Assembly: GCF_002286735.1 (NCBI RefSeq)
Contig: NZ_NRTA01000034.1
Span: 1 to 47,759, forward strand
Length of the DNA: 47,759 nucleotides
Direction: 5' to 3'
Origin: Leptolyngbya sp. BC1307
Lineage (GTDB): Bacteria; Cyanobacteriota; Cyanobacteriia; Phormidesmidales; Phormidesmidaceae
In this document: one piece after another, positions 20,085-31,912 of the stretch
How positions within the stretch are numbered: position 1 is the first letter of the stretch
Layout of the letters: the number at the start of each line of letters is the position of its first letter
Translations under genes and position numbers: made by a program
The notes under the pieces: model-generated
Database searches by the model: none
What the model was told of the DNA's origin: nothing
The model's input: only the letters and a program-made list of their open reading frames with translations

Positions 20085-21062
20085 TTGAGCCCGCCGAAGC
20101 AAAGAGCGCCGAATAATCGAACGTTGACGCTCAGTGCAGAAGAATCGGAAAGGTATGCTTCTGCACTATTGACTTTGAGCAGCCCTCAACCGGTAGCGTC
20201 TATCCTCGACCAGACCATTCACCAAAGCTTGTTTGAGGTGCTGCCGTGGTTGCCGGATGGCTTCGTCGATTTGCTGATTGTCGATCCGCCGTATAACCGG
20301 CATAAGGATTTTAACGGGGTCGCGTTTAAGGCTAGGTCACCTGCCGCCTATCAGCAATGGCTGACGACTTGGCTTCCCCATTTGCCGCGCTTACTAAAAC
20401 CGACCGCCTCTATATATATGTGCTGCGATTGGCAGTCCTCCAATGCGATTTACGAGGCGTTTACTCAGCACTTTCAGGTGCGCAACCGGATTACCTGGGA
20501 GCGCGAAAAAGGGCGCGGGGCCAAGCGCAACTGGAAAAATGCCTCGGAAGATATCTGGTTTGGCACGGTTTCTGATGACTACACCTTTAACGTGGAGGCG
20601 GTGAAGCTTCAACGGCGGGTACTTGCGCCTTATCGGGATAAGGCGGGCCAGCCGAAAGACTGGCAAGAGTCGCAGCAGGGAAAATTTAGAGCGACGCATC
20701 CTTCTAACCTGTGGACGGATATTTCGGTGCCCTTTTGGTCGATGCCTGAGAATACCGACCATCCGACGCAGAAGCCTGAGAAGCTAATTGCCAAGCTGAT
20801 TTTGGCAAGTTCCAGCCCCGGTGATGTTGTGTTCGATCCGTTTTTGGGATCAGGGACAAGTTCGGTAGTGGCAAAAAAGCTGGGGCGTCACTATGTAGGG
20901 GTGGAGCAGGAAGAACTGTACTGCTGTTTGGCCCAGAAGCGATTGGCGCTGGCTACGGAAAATTCGACTATTCAAGGCTACGCTGAGGAAGCCTTTTGGG
21001 AGCGCAATGTTTCACTGGGTCTGCAGCCTAAGCCGCATGACTCTTTCGATAACAAACGTTGA
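20085..21062 (+). CDS. orphan beta-class site-specific DNA methyltransferase
   Basis: 325 residues. The catalytic motif IV is DPPY (67-70), preceded by FVDLLIV. The SAM-binding motif I is in the C-terminal part (DPFLGSGTSS, 251-260, then VVAKKLGRHYVGVE). This order (IV, recognition domain, I) defines beta-class N6-adenine/N4-cytosine enzymes. The middle contains RNRITWEREKGRGAKRNWKN and LWTDISVPFWSMPENTDHPT. No restriction enzyme is adjacent. From memory the protein resembles the conserved cyanobacterial orphan methyltransferase Sll0729 (M.Ssp6803II, GGCC N4-cytosine), which affects gene expression and DNA maintenance; a search is needed. Start is TTG 20085, since no in-frame ATG or GTG suits and homologous sequence begins near NNRTLTLSAEE. 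Confidence 0.85.
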   Translation: MSPPKQRAPNNRTLTLSAEESERYASALLTLSSPQPVASILDQTIHQSLFEVLPWLPDGFVDLLIVDPPYNRHKDFNGVAFKARSPAAYQQWLTTWLPHLPRLLKPTASIYMCCDWQSSNAIYEAFTQHFQVRNRITWEREKGRGAKRNWKNASEDIWFGTVSDDYTFNVEAVKLQRRVLAPYRDKAGQPKDWQESQQGKFRATHPSNLWTDISVPFWSMPENTDHPTQKPEKLIAKLILASSSPGDVVFDPFLGSGTSSVVAKKLGRHYVGVEQEELYCCLAQKRLALATENSTIQGYAEEAFWERNVSLGLQPKPHDSFDNKR

Positions 21063-21208: not shown

Positions 21209-22567
21209 ATGCTGTCAGTTGCCGAGCCCCAATCACAAACAGATAGTCAGACAGTTTACTTTCGCTGCATCGCGGGCTGCTCCGCCAAGCATTCGATTTT
21301 TGACGTGATTTACCGCTGCCCGTCCTGCGGCAGCCTGCTGGAAGTGCATCACGAACGTGAACCGCTCAAAAAACGCGACGCCTCTCAATGGCGGCAACTG
21401 TTCGACTCGCGGGTTGGCACCACAACATGGCCATACGGTAGCGGCGTGTGGGGAATGCGTGAGTGGGTCATTCCCTCTCTGGCTGACGAAAATATAGTCA
21501 GTATGTGCGAAGGCAATACGAACTTGTTTTGGGCCGAACGATTAGGAAAGCAGCTCGGCGTCCCTGACCTGTGGATCAAGCTCTGCGGCATCAGCCACAC
21601 CGGCAGCTTCAAAGATCTGGGTATGACCGTGCTGGTGAGCGTCGTCAAGCAAATGATGGCTCAGGGCAGCAGTGTGAAAGCCGTTGCCTGCGCCAGTACG
21701 GGTGACACCAGTGCTGCACTCGCAGCTTACGCGGCTTACGCGGGAATTCCGGCCATTATCTTTTTGCCTGCGGGTAAAGTCAGTACGGCGCAGCTAATTC
21801 AACCGGTTGCCAACGGTGCGCATGTGCTGGCGCTCGACACTGACTTCGATGGCTGCATGAAAATTGTCCAGGAAGTGACACAGGACAAGTCTATTTATCT
21901 AGCTAATTCGATGAACAGTCTGCGCATCGAAGGCCAGAAGACGGTCGGCATTGAAATCGCCAAACAGTTTGATTGGGAAGTACCTGACTGGATCGTGATC
22001 CCGGTTGGCAACCTTGGCAACATCAGCGCCCTCCACAAAGGCTTCCAACTGATGATGGATCTTGGGCTAATTACTCGAATGCCCAGGCTAGTCGCCGCTC
22101 AAGCGGCCAGAGCTAATCCTTTTTATGAATCTTTTAAAACCGGATTCAAAGAAAAGATCAGCGTGACCGCACAAAACACGTTGGCCAATGCCATCCGGAT
22201 TGGCAGTCCGGTTAGCTATGAGAAAGCGGTGAAGGCGATCGCTGAAACAGATGGCATTGTCGAACAGGCGACCGAAAACGAATTGGCTGCCGCCGCCGCG
22301 CACGCTGATTTGACTGGCATGTTTACCTGCCCGCATACCGGTGTGGCGCTTGCCGTGCTGACTAAGCTGATTAAGCGCGGCGTGATCAAATCTAGTGACA
22401 AGACGGTGGTGATTAGCACGGCTCACGGGCTGAAGTTTACCGATTTCAAAGTCGGCTACCATGAGTCGTCGCTGGAAGAAGTGACTAGCCAATATGCCAA
22501 CCCTGCTGTTTACCTGCCAGCCAATGCGGACGCTGTGAAAGCTGAAATCGAAAAAAGGATCAGTTAA
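21209..22567 (+). CDS. thrC: threonine synthase
   Basis: 452 residues, PLP fold type II. An N-terminal zinc-ribbon-like segment, [12 protein letters not shown]...[11 protein letters not shown], precedes the catalytic core. The PLP-binding Lys lies in [15 protein letters not shown], and the phosphate-binding and substrate region includes [20 protein letters not shown]. Later blocks include [19 protein letters not shown] and [12 protein letters not shown]. The enzyme converts O-phosphohomoserine to threonine. It is a single gene, and other thr genes are absent from the window. A HIP1 site lies at 22601, just after the gene. Confidence 0.96.
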
Positions 22568-22720: not shown

Positions 22721-23338
22721 ATGAGCTTGAAAGTAATTGAGCTGAAGTTTTTATTGAAGCTGTTGGGATCTGAGGGATACCGTGATCAAATTACGGAGCT
22801 ATCTCCTAATAGCAAAACGAAGGCGGCTGAGCGCGATCGCGTTTGCGAAACCCTGAGTTCCAAGGGATACGTGGACTACGACAGTGAAGTCGCCTACTTC
22901 AAAATTGCGCCTCCCGGTAGAACGCTGCTAACGCTAGATACCACCAGCCTGCCGGTCACGCCCGATGAGCTGAAGGTGCTGAAAGCCTGTAAGGATACGA
23001 TGACGCCCGGTAAGCTGCCGGTGCCCGCAAATGTCCGTCAGCAGCTCATTAGCAGTTTGGCCGAGCGGGGAATGCTCACGATTACAAAATATACGATTAA
23101 AGAAGTCAGGCTGAGTGCGCAGGGCAAACAGTTCCTGCGAGATGAGTACGATCCGACGGGCAATTATCCTGCGGCAACGGCGACGATGCTGGGTCACTAC
23201 GTGAAGTTTTTACGCGAGAGCTTGGGAGGGCAGGCTGCGTCGCACTTACCGAGTAGTCAACCTCGCCCGCAGCAGACTCTCAGTCGGCAGGGCCAACCGG
23301 GCAGTCAGTCAAGTAGCTCGATGCCTATAGGATCTTGA
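22721..23338 (+). CDS. winged-helix-like protein, first gene of the candidate nuclease/ATPase cluster
   Basis: 205 residues. The first ~65 residues (IELKFLLKLLGSEGYRDQI, then AAERDRVCETLSSKGYVDYD and IAPPGRTLLTLD) look like a winged-helix domain. A second similar unit follows (TPDELKVLKACKDTMTPGKL, RQQLISSLAERGMLTITK, LSAQGKQFLRDEY). The last ~50 residues are a Gln/Ser/Pro-rich disordered tail. The protein is probably a nucleic-acid-binding adaptor or a regulator of the genes downstream. No exact family is recognised. It starts 153 bp after thrC and ends 57 bp before the nuclease gene, so it may be the first gene of that operon, or an independent cyanobacterial gene. Confidence 0.62.
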   Translation: MSLKVIELKFLLKLLGSEGYRDQITELSPNSKTKAAERDRVCETLSSKGYVDYDSEVAYFKIAPPGRTLLTLDTTSLPVTPDELKVLKACKDTMTPGKLPVPANVRQQLISSLAERGMLTITKYTIKEVRLSAQGKQFLRDEYDPTGNYPAATATMLGHYVKFLRESLGGQAASHLPSSQPRPQQTLSRQGQPGSQSSSSMPIGS

Positions 23339-23395
23339 AAGAAATCTGGGAACTCATGTAGTGAGATGGAGAAGGAATGAAAAGTAAAGGGTTCC

Positions 23396-24670
23396 ATGAC
23401 AAGTCAGAAAACGCTGGACGTTGAACAACAGCAAACAGCCTTTGTTAGCAAATTAGCGTTGCATCAGTCCCGGCGAAACCAGTCCATCCCGACGCTGTCT
23501 GTTTTGACAGGCGGTGCAGCGGCAACGCAGCTTCTTTGGAATCAATGGGCGCAGCAGGTTGATCGACATACCGCTGTTTGTACTTATGAGTCAGCGCTTT
23601 CGCTGTTTGAGGGTTGGCTTTCTATTGTTGTCCAGCATTACGACCTACGGTCTCTGGTTCTAGAACGGGTTGCCCAGCTATCCGACCGAGCTGTTGAGCA
23701 GCTATCCGCTTGGCTGACTCACGCGAGTGAATATCAAATAGAGCGATTCTGGCAGCAGCAATGTGCTCAGTCTGAGCAGGGTCGTTGGTTAAAAGTACTC
23801 CTAGATCGGGCTAAGCCTCTCTGCGGAAAATTTCGGGAAGCGTTCAACTCTGAGGGCATTGAGCTAAAGGCGAATGACCTGCCTGTGATCGCACAACTCT
23901 TCACGCTCGTCTCTACCCTTCTTCCTGAAAACGCCGCGCCAGGAATTCTCATCCGCCTACCCCCTGATTGCCACGAGTTTCCCCAGCAGACGATCCTGAT
24001 AGCACTGACACAACTGGTCGAAGCAGTCCCGAAAATTCCCATCGGTCTTTTACTCCCCTCTGATCAAGCCGATGAACTGCTAAACACGCTGCCAGAATCC
24101 AGAGCGAAGGCGACTTTGCGAGGCGGCATGGTTGAAATCACTGCGCCGGGGAAAAATGGGCTGCGACAGTGGCTGAGTGATCGCGGTTTAAAGCGCGAAG
24201 ACCATCTGCAATCCATTGTCCATGCTGGGCAAAAGTACGGTGCTACCGAAGCAATACTGAATGCGGCACTGGCGCTCACAGAGTCGGCTGAAAAAGCTGA
24301 ACCCACTGCTGACGAGAAGGAGAATTACCGCAGTCAGGCAGAGTGGCTTCTATTTCAGTACTTAGAAGCAAGACCTGCGACTTCTGGGCAGTTTCGAGTC
24401 AATGCTCAGCTCGATATCCGCTTTGGTAACCGGTCTATGGAAGTTGATTTTCTGGCAGATAGCGCCAAAATCGTCGTTGAGCTGGATGGTTACTATCACT
24501 TTCAGTCATCTGATAGCTATCGCCGCGATCGCCGCAAAGACATCGCTCTACAGCAGGCAGGCTTCTGGGTTTTGCGCTTCCTCTCTGAAGATGTCATTGC
24601 CCGCCTCGAAGAAATCCTTGCTACTATCGACCAGGCTTTATCGCTTCGACTTGCTCAATCATCCGTTTAA
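23396..24670 (+). CDS. DUF559 (Vsr-like PD-(D/E)XK) nuclease with an uncharacterised N-terminal region
   Basis: 424 residues. The C-terminal ~80 residues are a DUF559 endonuclease domain: MEVDFLADSAKIVVELDGYY, His368, then SYRRDRRKDIALQQAGFWVL and RFLSEDV. Predicted catalytic residues are Asp351, Glu362 and Asp364. DUF559 is related to the Vsr/restriction-endonuclease fold. The first ~330 residues are helical with strand-forming LSVLTGG and ILIRLPPDCHEFPQ segments, but I see no Walker motif. They could be a degenerate NTPase or a protein-protein module. The gene is 11 bp from the next. The domain and neighbouring ATPases suggest DNA cleavage controlled by the ATPase partners (inference). Confidence 0.75.
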   Translation: MTSQKTLDVEQQQTAFVSKLALHQSRRNQSIPTLSVLTGGAAATQLLWNQWAQQVDRHTAVCTYESALSLFEGWLSIVVQHYDLRSLVLERVAQLSDRAVEQLSAWLTHASEYQIERFWQQQCAQSEQGRWLKVLLDRAKPLCGKFREAFNSEGIELKANDLPVIAQLFTLVSTLLPENAAPGILIRLPPDCHEFPQQTILIALTQLVEAVPKIPIGLLLPSDQADELLNTLPESRAKATLRGGMVEITAPGKNGLRQWLSDRGLKREDHLQSIVHAGQKYGATEAILNAALALTESAEKAEPTADEKENYRSQAEWLLFQYLEARPATSGQFRVNAQLDIRFGNRSMEVDFLADSAKIVVELDGYYHFQSSDSYRRDRRKDIALQQAGFWVLRFLSEDVIARLEEILATIDQALSLRLAQSSV

Positions 24671-24681
24671 CTGGAGTCATC

Positions 24682-25764
24682 ATGCGCCCACTGCAACCGA
24701 TCACACTTTCAGACTTGATCCTCAGCCGTCTGCTGTTGGTAAAAGAGGGTGGTCTTATTAAAAGTAAGCTGAAAGATTCTGTGAAAGCGATCGCAGCCAG
24801 TCAGCTATCTGCATCAGCGCTGACTGAGCAACTAGAGCAAGCGCTTACATCACTTGAGGAAAAAGGCTATGCCGAGTCTGCTGGCAAAGCTCGTTACCAA
24901 GCGACAGACAAAGGAACTCAATACATCCTTAAGCAGCTAAAGCTAGAAACGCTGCCGACTAGGTTACAGTGGCCTACTTTCAAAAACACGTATTGGATTG
25001 CCTATGCTCTGGGTTTGCCAGCGCTAACCTCAGAAACCAGAAAGCGGCTAGCTGATGCGGATAGATTGCGAGCGGCTATCTTACAGTCTGAATATGATTT
25101 GCCTATAGACGCATTCTCGTCGCTGACTGAAACTCGTAATGCTCTGCTGTGGCAGCAACTATTTGACCCATCTGTTGCTCAGAGCTTGCAAGATCAGCTC
25201 CCTCAGCTCAGTCAGCAAGCGTTCAACCAAGGGGCAGTCATGGGGTTATTGCTGAACAATATTTTGCAAACGCCCAAGCCTTTGAAATGGGATAAGGCGC
25301 TCAACCAGCTTATTGCTAAAGCTGCTGGTGCTCGGAATAATCCTGACCAGTTGCGTTTGGCTATTCTTCGGCAAGCTTTTATAGATGGGCCGGTCGAACC
25401 GGCTTTTGAACCAGAGACTTTGAAGCAATCTATATCCGAAGCCCCAACCCAACCTAAAGCGTTCTCAAATCTGGAGCTTGAGGACTTTGCTAATACGGTA
25501 TTAGCAGCGGCTAAAGATACTGAAGAAGGGTGGTTTGGAGACCATAAAGTATTTATTTCGCAAGTTTGGAAGACCCTAAGTTCGCAGCAACCGGATTGGA
25601 ACCTGACACTAGACGAATTCAAGCAGAAACTTTTGGCAGCGAGCCGTAAAGAATGGATTAACCTGAGCCGCGCCGACTTAGGTTACTCCCTTGACTCAGA
25701 AGACGTAGCGGCTTCCGAAATTATCCATTTGCAAAGCCAGTTTCATTTCATTCGTACCGACTAA
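24682..25764 (+). CDS. winged-helix-like protein with an unrecognised conserved C-terminal domain
   Basis: 360 residues. Residues 1-80 form a probable winged helix (LSDLILSRLLLVKEGGLI, LTEQLEQALTSLEEKGYA, YQATDKGTQYILK). The middle is a long helical region. The last ~100 residues (EDFANTVLAAAKDTEEGWFG, DHKVFISQVWKTL, LDEFKQKLLAASRKEWINLS, RADLGY, then HLQSQFHFIR) look like a compact domain with many conserved-type aromatic and charged positions. I believe I have seen similar tails in other bacterial ATPase-linked proteins, but I cannot name the family. GGAG lies 7 nt before ATG 24682. Probably a DNA-binding or assembly subunit of the cluster. Confidence 0.65.
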   Translation: MRPLQPITLSDLILSRLLLVKEGGLIKSKLKDSVKAIAASQLSASALTEQLEQALTSLEEKGYAESAGKARYQATDKGTQYILKQLKLETLPTRLQWPTFKNTYWIAYALGLPALTSETRKRLADADRLRAAILQSEYDLPIDAFSSLTETRNALLWQQLFDPSVAQSLQDQLPQLSQQAFNQGAVMGLLLNNILQTPKPLKWDKALNQLIAKAAGARNNPDQLRLAILRQAFIDGPVEPAFEPETLKQSISEAPTQPKAFSNLELEDFANTVLAAAKDTEEGWFGDHKVFISQVWKTLSSQQPDWNLTLDEFKQKLLAASRKEWINLSRADLGYSLDSEDVAASEIIHLQSQFHFIRTD

Positions 25765-25808
25765 ACTTTTCCAAAATAACCTTTTGCCGCCTGGATTTCT
25801 TTTTCCCA

Positions 25809-28800
25809 ATGACCACAGAACAGCAGCTAACCGTATTTTGCTCTCAGCAGGGTTTAGACACCTTTCACGCGATTACGCATCAGCATCACATTTGGCATCC
25901 CGACCCTTATGATGTCGACACCATCCATCAGTCAGCGCGGTCAGCCTATGAGCGCCTGCTCAATAGAGTAGATAGCGGCACTTCGGATGATTCAGGGCGA
26001 ATTTTACTACTGCTAGGAGAGTCAGGCGCTGGCAAAACCCACTTGATGCGCGTCTTTCGCAATCAAACGCATGGGAGAAATCAGGGATTCTTTAGCTACA
26101 TGCAGATGACATCTGCCGTCTCTAACTACGCGCGGTATGTACTCAGGAACACAATCGACTCTTTTGAAAAGCCCTATTACGAGGATTTTGGCGTCACGAC
26201 TGGGCTGATGAAAATTTCAAACGCTTTGGCAGAGAGTCCGGGCGTGATGACTGAGGGTGAACTGCATTTATTAAGAGAGGAAGATCTCAGCACCTCTGAG
26301 CTATTAGATCTGATTTATCCGGTTGCGGATCGAGTGATAGCAATAGAGAAGCTTAGCGGCGTGGACTTGGACGTTATTCGAGCGCTGCTTTATCTTCAGG
26401 CTGGTCAAGCTGCTATCAATGCCAAGGTGCTGAAGTTTCTACGGTGTGAGCCGTTAGCACCGTACGACAGCGGCGTATTAGGTGGGATGGCTTCGCGTGA
26501 TCGCGATGACGATCCCCTCCGAATGTTGCAGTCTCTAGCGCTCCTCGTTCGGGCGGTCACAACCGGCGCTTTCATTATTTGCCTCGACCAGCTAGAAGAC
26601 ATTCGTGAGATGGAATCCGCCGAGCAGCGTTTTCGGCGGGCTATGCAAACCATCGTCACTATTGCTGAAATTCCTAATGTGGTAGTCGTGATCTCTTGCT
26701 TGGATGATTTCTATAGCAGCTTGAAGCAATATCTTCCTAAGCCCCACCTTGATCGCTTAGAACTAGACCCTGCACCCGTCACGCTCAAAGCGCAAAGAAC
26801 AGCGGATGATATCCAGCTGATTATCGAAAGACGCCTACAGCATCTCTACGATTCAGCCGATACTGATATATCAGACAATCAAGATCCTTTGTATCCTTTT
26901 CCTTCTGAAACAGTAGATAAACTAGCAGGCTTACCCACTCGGCGTGTCTTGGACTGGTGTCTTCAAAAAAGAGAAGAGAGCATTTCTACAGGCCAGCCCC
27001 CCAAACTACATGGCGATATAGTCCCAGATCCTCCTCTAGAGCCGACAGAACTTAGTCAGCTTTGGAACGATCACCTAGCTGGTACCTTTACGTTGCCTGA
27101 GAGCGATCGCGACCTACTGAACCTTCTAAGCGCCAGCATCCCGCAATGCGCTCAAGAACTCGGCGGTAATAACTACCGTTTCACCGTCAGCGAAGAAGGC
27201 AATTATCTCAAAACTGACATTCAGCTAGGGCAAAATACTCTCAAAGAGTCTTTGTTAATTGGCCTATGCCAAAAGTCCTCGGCGGGCGGCGCTTTGTTGA
27301 GGCAGATCAAAGTATTTGAGCAAGCTGCCGCTGACTATATCCCTGTAATCATCAGAACTACAGAGTTTCCGAGTAATCCGAAGACACAAACCGCTCAGAA
27401 AATCGGTCAGTTTTTGAGTAGCGGTGGCCGTAGAGCTATGGTCGTAGACTCCGACTGGCGAACGATGCTGGCGATTCAAAGCTTTCAGGAACTGCATAGT
27501 CCCCGATCTGAGTACCAGCAATGGCTGCAAACAGAGCAGCCGCTGTCTCAACTGCCCTCTTTTCAAAAAATGCTCAACCTAAACGAGCTAAAAGCAGAGA
27601 TCCCAGTATTAACCACCGAGGCGATACCTACAGGAGTTGGTTCAGATAACATGACCGCTCGCACAGAACCCATTTCAAATCCTGAAAAGCCTACGCCTAT
27701 ATCGTCCTTTTCAACCAGCCCCACTTTACCTATCCCTGATTCAGTTATTTCCTTAGGGTATACCCGCACGACTTTGCCAGAGCCCGTAGAACTTGGGCCA
27801 GAAAAATTGGTACGGCATGGTGCTTTTTTAGGTGGCACAGGCAGTGGCAAAACCACGTTGGCATTAACCCTAATCGAACAGCTACTGCTGCGAGGTATCC
27901 CTGCAATCCTGCTAGATCGCAAAGGCGACTTGTGCAGCTATGCAAACCCTGATGCCTGGAATCAGCCCGACAGCGATCCTCAGCTAGCTGCTTGCCGTCA
28001 ATTACTTCGAGACAAAGTAGAAGTCGCCGTCTACACCCCCGGTACGATTGGAGAACAGGGCCGACCGTTAAGCATTGCTATTACACCACCGGGCTTAGGC
28101 CAATTACCCAGCGGTGAACGTCGGCAAATTGCTAACTATTGCGCAATGGCGCTAGGTGGCATTTTGAACTACAAGCAGTACGGTCAAGACAAGACTCGGA
28201 TTGCTATTTTAGGACAGGCGATCGCAGTGCTGAGTGAGCTACAGATTGAGAACCCGCTCAATATAAATCGGCTGATTGAATTTATCTCAGAAGTAGACCC
28301 GCTGTTAGTCAATGCCATCGGCGTTCTAGATCCGAAGCATTGCAAAAAGCTTGCCGAAGACCTGCAAACGCTCAGTCTGATGACAGGTCATCTATTTAAT
28401 AGTCAGGCCGAGCAACTGTCAGCCGACCAGCTATTAACCAGCCAATCGCCCCAAAAAACGCCACTGTCGATCATCAACTTAGGCTCTCTAGGAGATAACG
28501 CCAATATCCTATTCTGGGTATCTCAGTTTCTGCTCGATTTCAATCGCTACGCACAGAAACACCCTTCTGGGAAGTTACAGGCAGTCGTGCTGTTTGATGA
28601 AGCCGATCTTTACCTGCCTGCGCAGGGCAAACCTTCTACCAAAGAACCCATGGAAAGCCTTTTGAAGCGCGCCCGTTCAGCGGGGATCGGCATCCTCCTT
28701 GCCACTCAAAGCCCTGGCGACCTGGATTACAAATGTCGAGACCAAATCTCCTCCTGGTTTGTGGGCAAGGTCAAAGAAAATACGGCACTCAACAAGCTAA

Positions 28801-28985
28801 AGCCCATGCTAAGCGAAGCCAAAGTAGATGTGACCAGCAAGCTAGCTAACCAAAAAGTAGGCGAATTCTTTGCTATTCGTGCAGGCGAGGTCACCAGCTT
28901 GAAAGCCAATATGTCGCTCGTGAAAGCTGAACAAGTCCCCCTTGAGGAAATTCTTACGCTAGCGGCTCAATCTAAGGGGCCTTAA
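25809..28985 (+). CDS. dual P-loop ATPase: AAA/ORC-like N-terminus, HerA/FtsK-like C-terminus
   Basis: 1058 residues with two complete nucleotide-binding modules. Module 1 has Walker A GESGAGKT (70-77) and Walker B FIICLDQLED (Asp260). The layout resembles ORC/STAND-type AAA proteins: TFHAITHQHHIWHPDPYDV lies upstream, with a probable winged-helix or lid after residue 350. Module 2 has Walker A GTGSGKTT (676-683), then LDRKGDLCSYA, and Walker B VVLFDEADLYLP (Asp930/Glu931). ARSAGIGILLATQSPGDLDY follows, the sensor/arginine-finger region of HerA/FtsK pumps. The C-terminus (GEFFAIRAGEVTSLK) is also HerA-like. Such pumps move along DNA as hexamers and often work with nucleases. Module 1 could sense a ligand or load the pump (inference). 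HIP1 sites and cyanobacterial codon use suggest long residence. Confidence 0.82.
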   Translation: MTTEQQLTVFCSQQGLDTFHAITHQHHIWHPDPYDVDTIHQSARSAYERLLNRVDSGTSDDSGRILLLLGESGAGKTHLMRVFRNQTHGRNQGFFSYMQMTSAVSNYARYVLRNTIDSFEKPYYEDFGVTTGLMKISNALAESPGVMTEGELHLLREEDLSTSELLDLIYPVADRVIAIEKLSGVDLDVIRALLYLQAGQAAINAKVLKFLRCEPLAPYDSGVLGGMASRDRDDDPLRMLQSLALLVRAVTTGAFIICLDQLEDIREMESAEQRFRRAMQTIVTIAEIPNVVVVISCLDDFYSSLKQYLPKPHLDRLELDPAPVTLKAQRTADDIQLIIERRLQHLYDSADTDISDNQDPLYPFPSETVDKLAGLPTRRVLDWCLQKREESISTGQPPKLHGDIVPDPPLEPTELSQLWNDHLAGTFTLPESDRDLLNLLSASIPQCAQELGGNNYRFTVSEEGNYLKTDIQLGQNTLKESLLIGLCQKSSAGGALLRQIKVFEQAAADYIPVIIRTTEFPSNPKTQTAQKIGQFLSSGGRRAMVVDSDWRTMLAIQSFQELHSPRSEYQQWLQTEQPLSQLPSFQKMLNLNELKAEIPVLTTEAIPTGVGSDNMTARTEPISNPEKPTPISSFSTSPTLPIPDSVISLGYTRTTLPEPVELGPEKLVRHGAFLGGTGSGKTTLALTLIEQLLLRGIPAILLDRKGDLCSYANPDAWNQPDSDPQLAACRQLLRDKVEVAVYTPGTIGEQGRPLSIAITPPGLGQLPSGERRQIANYCAMALGGILNYKQYGQDKTRIAILGQAIAVLSELQIENPLNINRLIEFISEVDPLLVNAIGVLDPKHCKKLAEDLQTLSLMTGHLFNSQAEQLSADQLLTSQSPQKTPLSIINLGSLGDNANILFWVSQFLLDFNRYAQKHPSGKLQAVVLFDEADLYLPAQGKPSTKEPMESLLKRARSAGIGILLATQSPGDLDYKCRDQISSWFVGKVKENTALNKLKPMLSEAKVDVTSKLANQKVGEFFAIRAGEVTSLKANMSLVKAEQVPLEEILTLAAQSKGP

Positions 28986-28989
28986 ATTC

Positions 28990-29625
28990 ATGATCTCGCT
29001 CCGGCGATCGCTCCTCCTCAGCCTTATCGTCCGCCACGATCCTGCCCATTTTCAGGTCGCTCTGGTCGATCCCAAGCGAGTCACCTTCCCCGAATTTGAG
29101 ACCATGCGCTGGCTGTATGAGCCGATTGTGAAAACCAAAGAAGACGCGATCGCACTCATGGAACGCCTCGTCGCTGAGATGGACAATCGCTATCAGCGCT
29201 TCGAGCATCGCCGCTGCTCAGACCTGCGCCAATACAACCAAAAAGCGCCGCAGCCCCTACCCCGCATTCTCTGCATTTTTGACGAATATGCCGACTTCAT
29301 GGCCGATAAAGAGGCCGCCAAAGCGCTCGAACAACATATTCAACGGTTGGGCGCAATGGCCCGCGCCGCCGGTATTCACCTGGTCATTGCCACCCAAAGA
29401 CCCGAGGCCAAAGTCGTTACGCTGCTGATTCGCTCAAACTTGCCCGGAAGAGTAGCCCTGCGCACGGCCAGCGATGCCGATTCTGCCATCATATTGGGCG
29501 GTAGGCAGGGGGCAGCAGCCAATCTGCTGGGGAAGGGCGACTTATTTTATGATGGCGGCGGTACGTTACAGCGGTTGCAGAGCTTATTTGTTCCGGCTAC
29601 AGCGATCGCTCCTTTAATCGGCTAG
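28990..29625 (+). CDS. 5'-truncated FtsK/SpoIIIE-type DNA translocase
   Basis: 211 residues corresponding to the C-terminal part of an FtsK-like motor. Homology starts at LRRSLLLSLIVRHDP, just after where the Walker A GKS/T would be. It continues through FQVALVDPKRVTFPEF, the Walker B ILCIFDEYADFM, AAGIHLVIATQRPEAKV, IRSNLPGRVALRT and NLLGKGDLFYDGGG. Walker A and everything before it are absent. The frame upstream of ATG 28990 is open only to a stop at 28960 and encodes no P-loop. The start lies 4 nt after the ATPase stop. The simplest reading is a deletion joining the two genes. The product cannot hydrolyse ATP alone, so it is a remnant or depends on its neighbour. Confidence 0.82.
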   Translation: MISLRRSLLLSLIVRHDPAHFQVALVDPKRVTFPEFETMRWLYEPIVKTKEDAIALMERLVAEMDNRYQRFEHRRCSDLRQYNQKAPQPLPRILCIFDEYADFMADKEAAKALEQHIQRLGAMARAAGIHLVIATQRPEAKVVTLLIRSNLPGRVALRTASDADSAIILGGRQGAAANLLGKGDLFYDGGGTLQRLQSLFVPATAIAPLIG

Positions 29626-31348: not shown

Positions 31349-31912
31349 TCAATTGCCCATTTTGCGTTTGAGATCGTCGAGTTCGTCCTCGGCTTCCCAC
31401 TGGCGAAAGGTCTCATCAAGAGGATCAAGGGCCTGATTGAAGCTGTAGGGACTTTGGTTCCAGCCGGTGGTTCCCCAGTCGGTGGCTTTGGGTGTGGTAG
31501 CGGCCTGAGCAATTTTAGTTTTGACTTCCTCTCGTTTGGTCATCACCCGCTGCCGCAGTTCCTTTGTTTGCTCAATGCGCTCTTTAACGCCCTGCATTTG
31601 GCCCCAGAGATGATTGCCCTGACGCAGTAAAGCTGCCTCTCGTTCTTGAGCTGGGCCGACTAAGTCTTGACGGTTGGCGGCTTTGGCTTTGGCAATGCGG
31701 TTGTGCCACTGCTGGATGTCTTGAGCTGTTTCTAGAATGCTGTCTTCTAGCTGTTTTTCGCGGCGCTTGAGATTGCCGAGGAGGGCTAGTGCATCTTCCT
31801 CCTGTCCGCGCAGCTGATCTTCTAGCGCACGCAGTTCTAAATGCGGATTGGCCCGCAAAAATTCATCTAACCGCGTTTCTAGAAAACGGCTGAGATCGTC
31901 AAATAGGCTCAT
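31349..31912 (-). CDS. TIGR04376 family coiled-coil protein (PspA-like)
   Basis: 187 residues starting MSLFDDLSRFLETRLDEFLR, which matches the cyanobacterial TIGR04376 family as I recall it. Most of the protein (about 30-135) is one long coiled coil of Glu/Gln/Arg/Leu heptads, e.g. EDQLRGQEEDALALLGNLKR and KERIEQTKELRQRV. The C-terminal tail ends in FRQWEAEDELDDLKRKMGN, a short amphipathic segment typical of PspA/IM30 relatives. The function is unknown; membrane-associated scaffolding is a guess by analogy. It is 45 bp downstream of the GspC/PilP-like gene in the same direction, with a tandem duplication between. Confidence 0.82.
   Translation of the reverse strand: MSLFDDLSRFLETRLDEFLRANPHLELRALEDQLRGQEEDALALLGNLKRREKQLEDSILETAQDIQQWHNRIAKAKAANRQDLVGPAQEREAALLRQGNHLWGQMQGVKERIEQTKELRQRVMTKREEVKTKIAQAATTPKATDWGTTGWNQSPYSFNQALDPLDETFRQWEAEDELDDLKRKMGN

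What the first reader, a model, noticed from the sequence alone, without database searches (positions are those of the whole stretch)
22721..29625. Five-gene nuclease/dual-ATPase/translocase cluster: candidate uncharacterised DNA defence or processing system
Seen: five same-direction genes with gaps of 57, 11, 44 and 4 bp. They encode a winged-helix-like protein, a DUF559 (Vsr-like) nuclease, a second winged-helix-like protein with a novel C-terminus, a 1058-residue protein with both an AAA/ORC-like and a HerA/FtsK-like ATPase, and an FtsK-type motor fragment. Known: HerA/FtsK-class pumps paired with nucleases are frequent in anti-phage systems (for example DUF4297-HerA, SIR2-HerA, DptFGH). 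Inference: this gene set matches none of the named systems I know (BREX, DISARM, Wadjet, Septu, Druantia, Zorya, Dnd/Dpt) and may be a new one, with sensing by the first ATPase, pumping by the second and cutting by DUF559.
Basis: partly seen in the sequence, partly recalled or inferred. Interest (0 to 1): 0.85.

Follow-up and report, generated by a model that had tools for sequence, protein, structure and literature searches.

The report
Swapped-in DNA-pump-and-nuclease defence candidate
Three of the five genes form a compact operon, found in the same order in four bacterial phyla, that probably pulls in and cuts invading DNA, and in this cyanobacterium it has replaced the middle of a resident operon built on the same plan, whose two broken ends are the other two genes.

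Summary
The five ORFs and gaps are as described, but they are not one cluster. Genes 2-3-4 (23396-28985) are a conserved module: a Walker-less ORC/AAA+-like domain fused to a DUF559/Vsr-like nuclease; a winged-helix protein; an ORC-like AAA fused to a HerA pump. They stand in that order at 16 of 16 informative non-redundant loci, window included, from four phyla. Yet the module is patchy: 14 of 63 genomes of the order match, some only as pieces. Genes 1 and 5 are the two ends of a different operon (winged helix - AAA - PD-(D/E)XK/FtsK-alpha/FtsK), intact at the same place in four of five genus-mates that lack the module. The module sits there in two lineages that are not sisters (AU p = 5e-7). 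The neighbouring methyltransferase is a core gene (54 of 60 genomes). The closest description is the predicted "HerA-FtsK capture" systems with Orc/CDC6 ATPases (Rakesh 2024); this is a variant of that kind, without a named PADLOC match or any experiment that I saw. Defence by DNA capture and cutting is inferred, not shown.

The parts
23396..24670 (+). Gene 2: AAA+/ORC-like domain without Walker A (residues ~9-300, 23420-24295) fused to a DUF559/Vsr-like nuclease (residues ~311-420, 24326-24655)
   Evidence: Pfam DUF559 6.9e-13; AF2 pLDDT 84; VIA Z 12.8/12.3 to 3hrl and I-Bth0305I, Z 11.9 to Cdc6p and to chain E of yeast ORC; Foldseek had no match at E<=0.001, best 2qby 0.0019; E316, D351, E362, D364, H368, D378 the same in 13 of 13 rows; no GK[ST] at the Walker A place in 9 near-group rows, gap there in 4 far-group rows
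24682..25764 (+). Gene 3: N-terminal PadR/MarR-like winged helix (residues ~1-90), helical middle, low-confidence C-terminal part (from residue ~266)
   Evidence: AF2 pLDDT 74; VIA Z 8-9 to wHTH proteins, Foldseek no match at E<=0.001; conserved between genes 2 and 4; no Pfam/PADLOC match above noise
25809..28985 (+). Gene 4: ORC-like AAA ATPase (residues ~1-420), unassigned middle (~425-640), HerA translocase (~650-1050)
   Evidence: AAA_16 40.7 bits, DUF87 41.6, HerA_C 42 bits, all over cut-off; Walker A of both ATPases, HerA Walker B DE, arginine R956 and sensor-1 Q967 the same in 11 of 11 rows; AAA Walker B reads DQ in 10 of 11
22721..23338 (+). Gene 1: truncated remnant (N-terminal ~200 of ~300 residues) of the resident operon's winged-helix protein; its C-terminal domain is lost
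   Evidence: Alignment A9: 61-63% identical to full-length copies in G001, G003, G004, G005; ends at ...MPIGS, where those go on
28990..29625 (+). Gene 5: C-terminal 206 residues of the resident operon's ~730-aa PD-(D/E)XK/FtsK-alpha/FtsK protein; Walker A missing
   Evidence: Alignment A10: 79-87% identical to the C-terminus of copies in G001, G003, G005, G006; domains of the intact G001 copy
23220..23419 (.). Left junction zone of the replacement
   Evidence: Nucleotide homology to resident loci stops at 23202-23219 (23148 for G006), protein similarity runs to the end of gene 1; homology to the G002 module begins at 23420
28974..29004 (.). Right junction: end of gene 4 against the FtsK C-terminus
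   Evidence: Homology to the G002 module ends 28973; homology to resident FtsK in G001, G003, G005, G006 starts 29004
20085..21062 (+). Flank, not part: N6/N4 DNA methyltransferase, core gene of the family
   Evidence: 54 of 60 family genomes, own included
31349..31912 (-). Flank, not part: conserved gene that marks the other side of the locus
   Evidence: 13 of 13 chosen genomes

Best explanation
Genes 2-4 are a complete three-gene anti-invader system of the HerA/FtsK 'capture' type. Proposed working: gene 4 forms a ring, its HerA half pumping duplex DNA and its ORC-like AAA half acting as a nucleotide-dependent loader or switch (its Walker B glutamate is mostly glutamine). The Walker-less AAA+-like domain of gene 2 docks on that AAA ring and so places the attached Vsr-like nuclease at the pump. 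Gene 3, a winged-helix protein, binds or inspects DNA and decides where the complex loads. DNA of a phage or plasmid that is being replicated, transferred or packaged is drawn in and cut. In this genome the module has replaced the middle of a resident operon with the same plan (winged-helix protein, ORC-like AAA, PD-(D/E)XK-FtsK), leaving its two ends as genes 1 and 5. Shown: domains, conserved motifs, conserved three-gene order, patchiness and decay, two alternative contents at one fixed locus. Inferred: complex, pumping, cutting, the trigger, the defence role and the direction of the replacement.
For: Order gene 2-3-4 at 16 of 16 loci where the start of gene 4 and the DNA upstream are held (window, 15 others), in Cyanobacteriota, a Nitrosomonas MAG, Methylobacterium, Tsukamurella, Nonomuraea and Pyxidicoccus. 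Catalytic and ATPase motifs kept across the near and the far group. Patchy: 14 of 63 in the order, 2 full copies (own and G016) among 386 of the phylum sample; decayed pieces in L039/L040, L055, L056, L097. Resident operon in genus-mates, its AAA homologous to gene 4's AAA (hhalign 99.5%, E 3e-22), its winged-helix protein homologous to the far module's (94%, E 1e-7). Window and G002 carry the module at the same place but are not sisters: AU p 4.8e-7, G002 groups with G003 (100/100), which has the resident operon. Published predictions for this combination of domains (PMC10853773); inactive STAND/ORC-type domains fused to effector proteins are a described theme in BREX (PMC12839542).
Against: No experiment. 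PADLOC names no system for genes 1-4; gene 4 matches only HerA-like parts at good scores, gene 2 only DpdF weakly. Of ten neighbours scanned at seven other loci one is a CRISPR effector (Cas12k beside L049) and one an IS transposase; the others that were named are ordinary genes, so no clear defence island. The AAA-like part of gene 2 did not match gene 4's AAA by profile, and the middle of gene 4 did not match the resident AAA's C-terminal part; the inactive REase of the published description was not demonstrated. Foldseek gave no match at E<=0.001 for either model. No self/non-self signal is evident. No match in 50,697 phage records and three of 72,556 plasmid records, two of which look chromosomal.
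Confidence: 0.68

Rival explanations
1. A DNA-processing or transfer module of a mobile element (integrative element or transposon), with the HerA ATPase moving the element's own DNA and the Vsr-like nuclease nicking it.
For: Sits in different surroundings in different genera and at one fixed place here; 1.8 kb from cas12k in L049; inside a ribosomal-protein cluster in Tsukamurella; the AAA+ fold of gene 2 also resembles TnsC and MuB.
Against: The constant unit is the three genes alone; among ten neighbours scanned there is one IS transposase, beside L049. Integrases and terminal repeats were not searched for systematically. HerA-type pumps plus nucleases without a relaxase are usual in defence (recalled, and PMC10853773).
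Confidence: 0.13
2. A cellular DNA-repair or segregation complex like HerA-NurA.
For: HerA plus nuclease architecture; purifying selection between window and G002 (dN/dS 0.08 for gene 4, 0.19 for gene 2, synonymous sites near saturation).
Against: No match at E<=1e-60 in 49 of 63 genomes of the order; decays; alternates with another operon at one place; the genome has four other DUF87-family matches, three over the cut-off.
Confidence: 0.08
3. One reading: all five genes are one system, with gene 5 a second pump subunit.
For: Adjacent, same strand, 4-bp gap; genes 1 and 5 are open and gene 5 shows no excess of amino-acid changes (dN 0.09-0.14 against 0.10-0.16 between intact copies).
Against: Gene 5 lacks Walker A and is the tail of a ~730-aa protein; G002 has genes 1-4 and no gene 5; genes 2-4 stand without 1 and 5 at the other loci (at G012 the contig ends just before gene 2).
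Confidence: 0.06
4. Genes 2-4 plus the shortened gene 1 form a four-gene unit in this genus, the truncated winged-helix protein having been kept for use by the new system (a sub-variant of the best explanation; the odds overlap).
For: Both carriers in the genus (window, G002) keep an open gene 1 of about 200 residues directly before gene 2, both cut in the same linker region.
Against: No gene 1 at the other loci.
Confidence: 0.12

Closest known systems
Orc/CDC6-coupled 'HerA-FtsK capture' systems (Rakesh, Aravind, Krishnan, NAR 2024, PMC10853773; computational prediction)
   Same: ORC-like AAA ATPase, HerA/FtsK pump with arginine finger and sensor-1 Q, a winged-helix protein, a nuclease, in various fusions; mobile neighbourhoods. 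FtsK-alpha fusions like that of the resident operon are described there too.
   Different: Here AAA and HerA are one protein; the nuclease is DUF559/Vsr-like and fused to a Walker-less AAA+-like domain; neither DUF559, Vsr nor MTES occurs in the main text. The inactive REase between AAA and wHTH was not demonstrated. Their supplement could not be read, so this very family may be listed there.
DndFGH / SspFGH
   Same: HerA/FtsK domain; the intact relative of gene 5 in G001 matches the C-terminus of SspH (5e-67); gene 4's HerA weakly matches DndH (1.3e-4).
   Different: No DndF, DndG or SspF/G match for genes 1-4.
MADS (mad1-mad8)
   Same: mad8 is the best PADLOC match of gene 4's HerA part (5.9e-22).
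   Different: No other MADS component beyond a weak mad3 match (0.011); gene 4 is an AAA-HerA fusion.
HerA-DUF4297 / HerA-SIR2
   Same: HerA pump with an effector nuclease partner (recalled).
   Different: Stand-alone HerA and DUF4297/SIR2 effector there (recalled); here an AAA-HerA fusion with DUF559.
BREX BrxB/iSTAND and BREX-related capture (BRC) systems (PMC12839542)
   Same: Inactive ORC/STAND-type domain paired with a nuclease; ORC AAA plus HerA/FtsK (passages).
   Different: No PglZ, TGT or GNAT match listed for genes 1-5.

Membership tests
Orc/CDC6 HerA-FtsK capture system | ORC/CDC6-type AAA+ ATPase in the operon | tested here: met
   AAA_16 over cut-off in gene 4; homologous to the resident operon's AAA; gene 4 itself was not folded
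Orc/CDC6 HerA-FtsK capture system | HerA/FtsK domain with arginine finger and sensor-1 Q | tested here: met
   Walker A/B, R956 and Q967 in 11 of 11 rows; feature list
Orc/CDC6 HerA-FtsK capture system | Active REase from one of two families | tested here: inconclusive
   A nuclease domain with the conserved residues is there (DUF559); whether it is one of the paper's two families could not be read; activity not shown
Orc/CDC6 HerA-FtsK capture system | Inactive REase between the AAA core and a C-terminal wHTH | tested here: inconclusive
   An unassigned ~215-residue region lies in that place in gene 4; no profile match to the corresponding part of the resident AAA; not folded
Orc/CDC6 HerA-FtsK capture system | wHTH; in a subset a rapidly evolving multi-wHTH protein related to DndG/SspB | tested here: met
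   Gene 3 N-terminal wHTH, 31-75% identity across the near loci; a second wHTH is low confidence; kinship to DndG/SspB not shown
DndFGH / SspFGH | DndF/SspF, DndG/SspG and a large multidomain DndH/SspH | tested here: not met
   No such PADLOC matches for genes 1-4 except the HerA part of DndH at 1.3e-4
MADS | Eight mad genes | tested here: not met
   Only mad8-like HerA/FtsK parts (genes 4, 5) and mad3 at 0.011
HerA-DUF4297 / HerA-SIR2 | DUF4297 or SIR2 effector next to a HerA gene | tested here: not met
   Not among the matches listed for genes 1-5 (gene 4's lists were cut at 25 of 42 and 25 of 47)
BREX / BRC | PglZ plus BrxC-type ATPase | tested here: not met
   No PglZ match for genes 1-5 or the five window neighbours scanned; BrxC_BrxD only at 0.0016, below cut-off, on gene 4
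Restriction-modification with the nearby methyltransferase | Methyltransferase co-inherited with the nuclease | tested here: not met
   Methyltransferase in 54 of 60 family genomes, with or without the module; beside the module only in the window and G002 among the loci compared

The most novel reading that the evidence does not exclude
A widespread but unnamed and untested immune system in which a nuclease carried on a dead ORC-like ATPase docks onto a living ORC-HerA ATPase; and the methyltransferase locus of this cyanobacterial genus is a swap site where one whole DNA-capture system has more than once replaced another of the same plan, a natural allelic exchange of immune systems.
Probability: 0.45. 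Interest if true: 0.78.

Novelty: new variant of a known kind. Interest (0 to 1): 0.6.

Why it matters
HerA/FtsK capture systems with ORC-like ATPases have been predicted from sequence; I saw no experimental test of them in the papers that my searches listed, though I did not search for one broadly. This module is small (three genes, about 5.6 kb), looks complete, recurs in four phyla and has clear active sites to mutate, so it makes the capture idea directly testable. The locus also gives a natural experiment: two related systems alternating at one site, with break points readable in the sequence and an intact control in a sister genome.

Tried and rejected
Five-gene unit: rejected, because genes 1 and 5 belong to another operon. 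Methyltransferase as partner (it is next to gene 1 in G002): rejected as a core gene. An early thought that gene 1 is the far module's winged-helix protein: not supported from two sequences (1.8%), but supported once full-length resident copies were used (94%); gene 3 against the same proteins stays weak. AAA-like part of gene 2 against the AAA of gene 4 by profile: no match, so their kinship rests on predicted fold only. Middle of gene 4 as inactive REase: not shown. Viral contigs: three matches are stand-alone HerA-like ATPases without the partner genes, dropped. L045 (HerA-like 801-aa protein without partners) was dropped from the locus count. L048, L050 and L096 are cut by contig ends upstream and were left out of the 16; fragments L039, L040, L055, L056, L097 likewise. 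In L038 (G012) gene 4 runs off the contig at its 3' end and in L044 it is broken; both were kept, as the upstream genes can be read. Six pairs of loci are the same sequence under two ids and were counted once. Foldseek hits of gene 3 to MukE/MukF and JetB (E 0.009 or worse) were not followed as evidence. In the VIA second look DndG and SspB were not listed for gene 3; that excludes nothing. HIP1 at the right junction is a single case in a genome type rich in HIP1 (recalled) and is not claimed as mechanism; a notebook entry gives its place wrongly, the right place is 29004-29011. Five paper searches with DUF559 listed no title or abstract about this operon in the held library; 14 papers hold the word (listing only). 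Two papers were opened in part, none read whole.


Full report
WHAT IS THERE. The five ORFs are at the stated coordinates with the stated gaps. The window is a contig of a 4.9-Mb, 222-contig genome; the nearest named relatives of gene 4 come from Nodosilinea- and Leptolyngbya-like cyanobacteria.

GENES 2-4 ARE A UNIT. I collected gene-4 relatives by whole-genome search, a scan of GTDB contigs (11 loci) and tblastn of plasmids (3 of 72,556 records; two of these look chromosomal, one being 11.9 Mb and one carrying ribosomal-protein genes). At 16 of 16 non-redundant loci where the start of gene 4 and the DNA upstream are held, genes 2, 3 and 4 follow one another on one strand (window, the other 15): window, G002, G017, G012, LEGE 07170, LEGE 06152, LEGE 07298, a Nitrosomonas MAG, Pyxidicoccus (near group), and G016, G009, G021, G008 (gene 4 broken there), Methylobacterium, Nonomuraea, Tsukamurella (far group, gene 4 20-23% identical to the window). 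Three loci cut by contig ends, five with pieces of gene 4 only and one with a HerA-like protein without partners (L045) were left out. The Nitrosomonas record is a MAG, so its host may be misassigned.

IT IS PATCHY AND DECAYS. In the order, 14 of 63 genomes (own included) match at E<=1e-60; nine of these are full length or nearly so, the rest are cut, broken or fragments. In a phylum sample of 386 genomes, 4 match at E<=1e-30, two of those only over the AAA half; that search scored two candidates a genome, so it is a lower bound. No phage record matches. A housekeeping role is unlikely.

DOMAINS. Gene 2: AlphaFold2 model with mean pLDDT 84. Residues 311-420 are a Vsr/DUF559-type nuclease (VIA Z 12.8 over 92 residues to 3hrl, rmsd 2.0; Z 12.3 over 96 residues to the I-Bth0305I domain, rmsd 2.5); E316, D351, E362, D364, H368, D378 and R394 are the same in 13 of 13 rows. 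Residues ~9-300 take an AAA+/ORC-like fold (VIA Z 11.9, 216 residues, rmsd 5.3 to Cdc6p 1fnn; Z 11.9, 212 residues, rmsd 4.7 to chain E of yeast ORC 7tjj). Foldseek gave no match at E<=0.001; its best, 2qby (Cdc6/Orc1), has E 0.0019. The nine near-group rows have no GK[ST] motif at the Walker A place; the four far-group rows have a gap there, their N-terminal part is shorter and was not folded. Gene 3: model pLDDT 74; N-terminal winged helix (VIA Z 8-9; no Foldseek match at E<=0.001), helical middle, C-terminal part of low confidence. Gene 4: ORC-like AAA with intact Walker A and a Walker B that reads DQ in 10 of 11 rows; HerA with Walker A, Walker B DE, arginine R956 and sensor-1 Q967 in 11 of 11. 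The middle (~425-640) is unassigned.

GENES 1 AND 5 ARE THE ENDS OF ANOTHER OPERON. The locus is framed by a methyltransferase (20085-21062), present in 54 of 60 family genomes, and the gene at 31349-31912, present in 13 of 13 chosen genomes. I fetched 15 stretches from 14 genomes around these flanks. In the five genus-mates without genes 2-4 (G001, G003, G004, G005, G006) the space holds a winged-helix protein of ~300 aa (50-62% to gene 1) and an AAA gene of ~680 aa and, in four of the five, a ~730-aa protein whose C-terminus is 79-88% identical to gene 5; in G004 the AAA gene is split between two frames and the contig ends. G011 has all three (its FtsK-type ORF only 580 aa), G022 the first two (contig end), G009 only the winged-helix gene; G007, G010 (short contig), G014, G016, G017, G018 show none beside the methyltransferase. 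The ~730-aa protein is PD-(D/E)XK nuclease + FtsK-alpha + FtsK (G001 copy) and matches the C-terminus of SspH (5e-67). Gene 1 stops where the full-length proteins go on to a C-terminal domain; gene 5 starts right after the Walker A of the FtsK domain. Nucleotide homology to the resident loci ends at 23202-23219 (23148 for G006) and resumes at 29004, then again from 29741 beyond gene 5. So the middle of the resident operon has been replaced by genes 2-4.

TWO REPLACEMENTS, OR TRANSFER BETWEEN LINEAGES. G002 carries genes 2-4 at the same place, with a shortened gene 1 and no gene 5. On three flanking proteins G002 groups with G003 (support 100/100), which keeps the resident operon, and a tree joining the window and G002 is rejected (AU p 4.8e-7); most other branches of that tree are unsupported. 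Gene 4 of the window and of G002 are nonetheless each other's closest kin in an 11-row tree (100/99), and their synonymous differences (pS 0.65 for genes 2 and 4) are lower than for the flanks (0.74 and 0.75), though all are near saturation. Gene 5 shows no excess of amino-acid change (dN 0.09-0.14 against 0.10-0.16 between intact copies), so its truncation is probably recent, or it is still under constraint. The reverse history (G003 regaining the resident operon) is not excluded.

BOTH SYSTEMS SHARE ONE PLAN. The resident AAA and the AAA of gene 4 are homologous (hhalign 99.5%, E 3e-22); the resident winged-helix protein and the far module's winged-helix protein too (94%, E 1e-7); gene 3 shows only a hint (32%, E 5e-4). 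Each has a winged-helix protein, an ORC-like AAA, a HerA/FtsK pump and a nuclease, but the nuclease types and fusions differ.

COMPARISON WITH WHAT IS KNOWN. Of PMC10853773 I saw the abstract and outline, passages and one part of twelve of the text. It describes mobile neighbourhoods with an Orc/CDC6 ATPase, an inactive REase between the AAA core and its wHTH, an active REase of one of two families, a HerA/FtsK and a wHTH, in varied fusions, some with FtsK-alpha, and proposes that they intercept selfish elements during segregation or transfer (abstract: replication, conjugation or packaging). Both operons here fit this plan in outline; the inactive REase and the nuclease family could not be checked. 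Of PMC12839542 I saw passages, the outline and one section: inactive STAND/ORC-type domains paired with or fused to effectors are a recurrent BREX theme, which makes gene 2's architecture plausible as a sensor-effector. PADLOC gives no named system.

HOW IT MAY WORK. Inferred only: loading by gene 3 and the AAA part, pumping by HerA, cutting by gene 2 held to the ring through its AAA+-like domain. What tells self from foreign DNA is unknown; the nearby methyltransferase is not linked to the module.

LIMITS. No experiment; gene 4 not folded; far-phylum prevalence not measured because the searches failed; supplement of the key paper not readable; neighbours scanned at seven other loci only.

Noticed in passing
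L049 14960-16816 (same as G456:C293 39116-40972): A cas12k-type gene (best PADLOC models Cas12j 2e-235 and Cas12k 5e-226) with a 214-aa MerR-like regulator (judged by eye from its first residues) lies 1.8 kb downstream of gene 4 in Nodosilinea sp. LEGE 07298; the module may lie in or beside a degraded type V-K CRISPR-associated transposon. No TnsB or TniQ was picked out by eye in the contig; no profile search for them was run.
   Followed up: partly
L062 4244-9212: In Tsukamurella the far-type module, with a VapBC pair and a DEAD-box helicase gene, sits between rplN and rpsQ inside the ribosomal-protein cluster.
   Followed up: no
window 21209-22567: A threonine-synthase-like PLP enzyme gene lies between the methyltransferase and gene 1 in the window; it had no blastp hit in L036 or in L120-L134, so it looks like a second insertion at this place.
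   Followed up: no
L039, L040, L055, L056, L097: Decayed copies of gene 4 keep only C-terminal pieces, mostly HerA, 55-87% identical to the window's protein.
   Followed up: partly
L125 2162-3696: In G006 the resident winged-helix gene is present twice in tandem (ORFs of 161 and 301 aa).
   Followed up: no
window 29004-29011: The right edge of the replacement falls at a HIP1 octamer GCGATCGC that the intact FtsK genes of G001 and G005 share.
   Followed up: no
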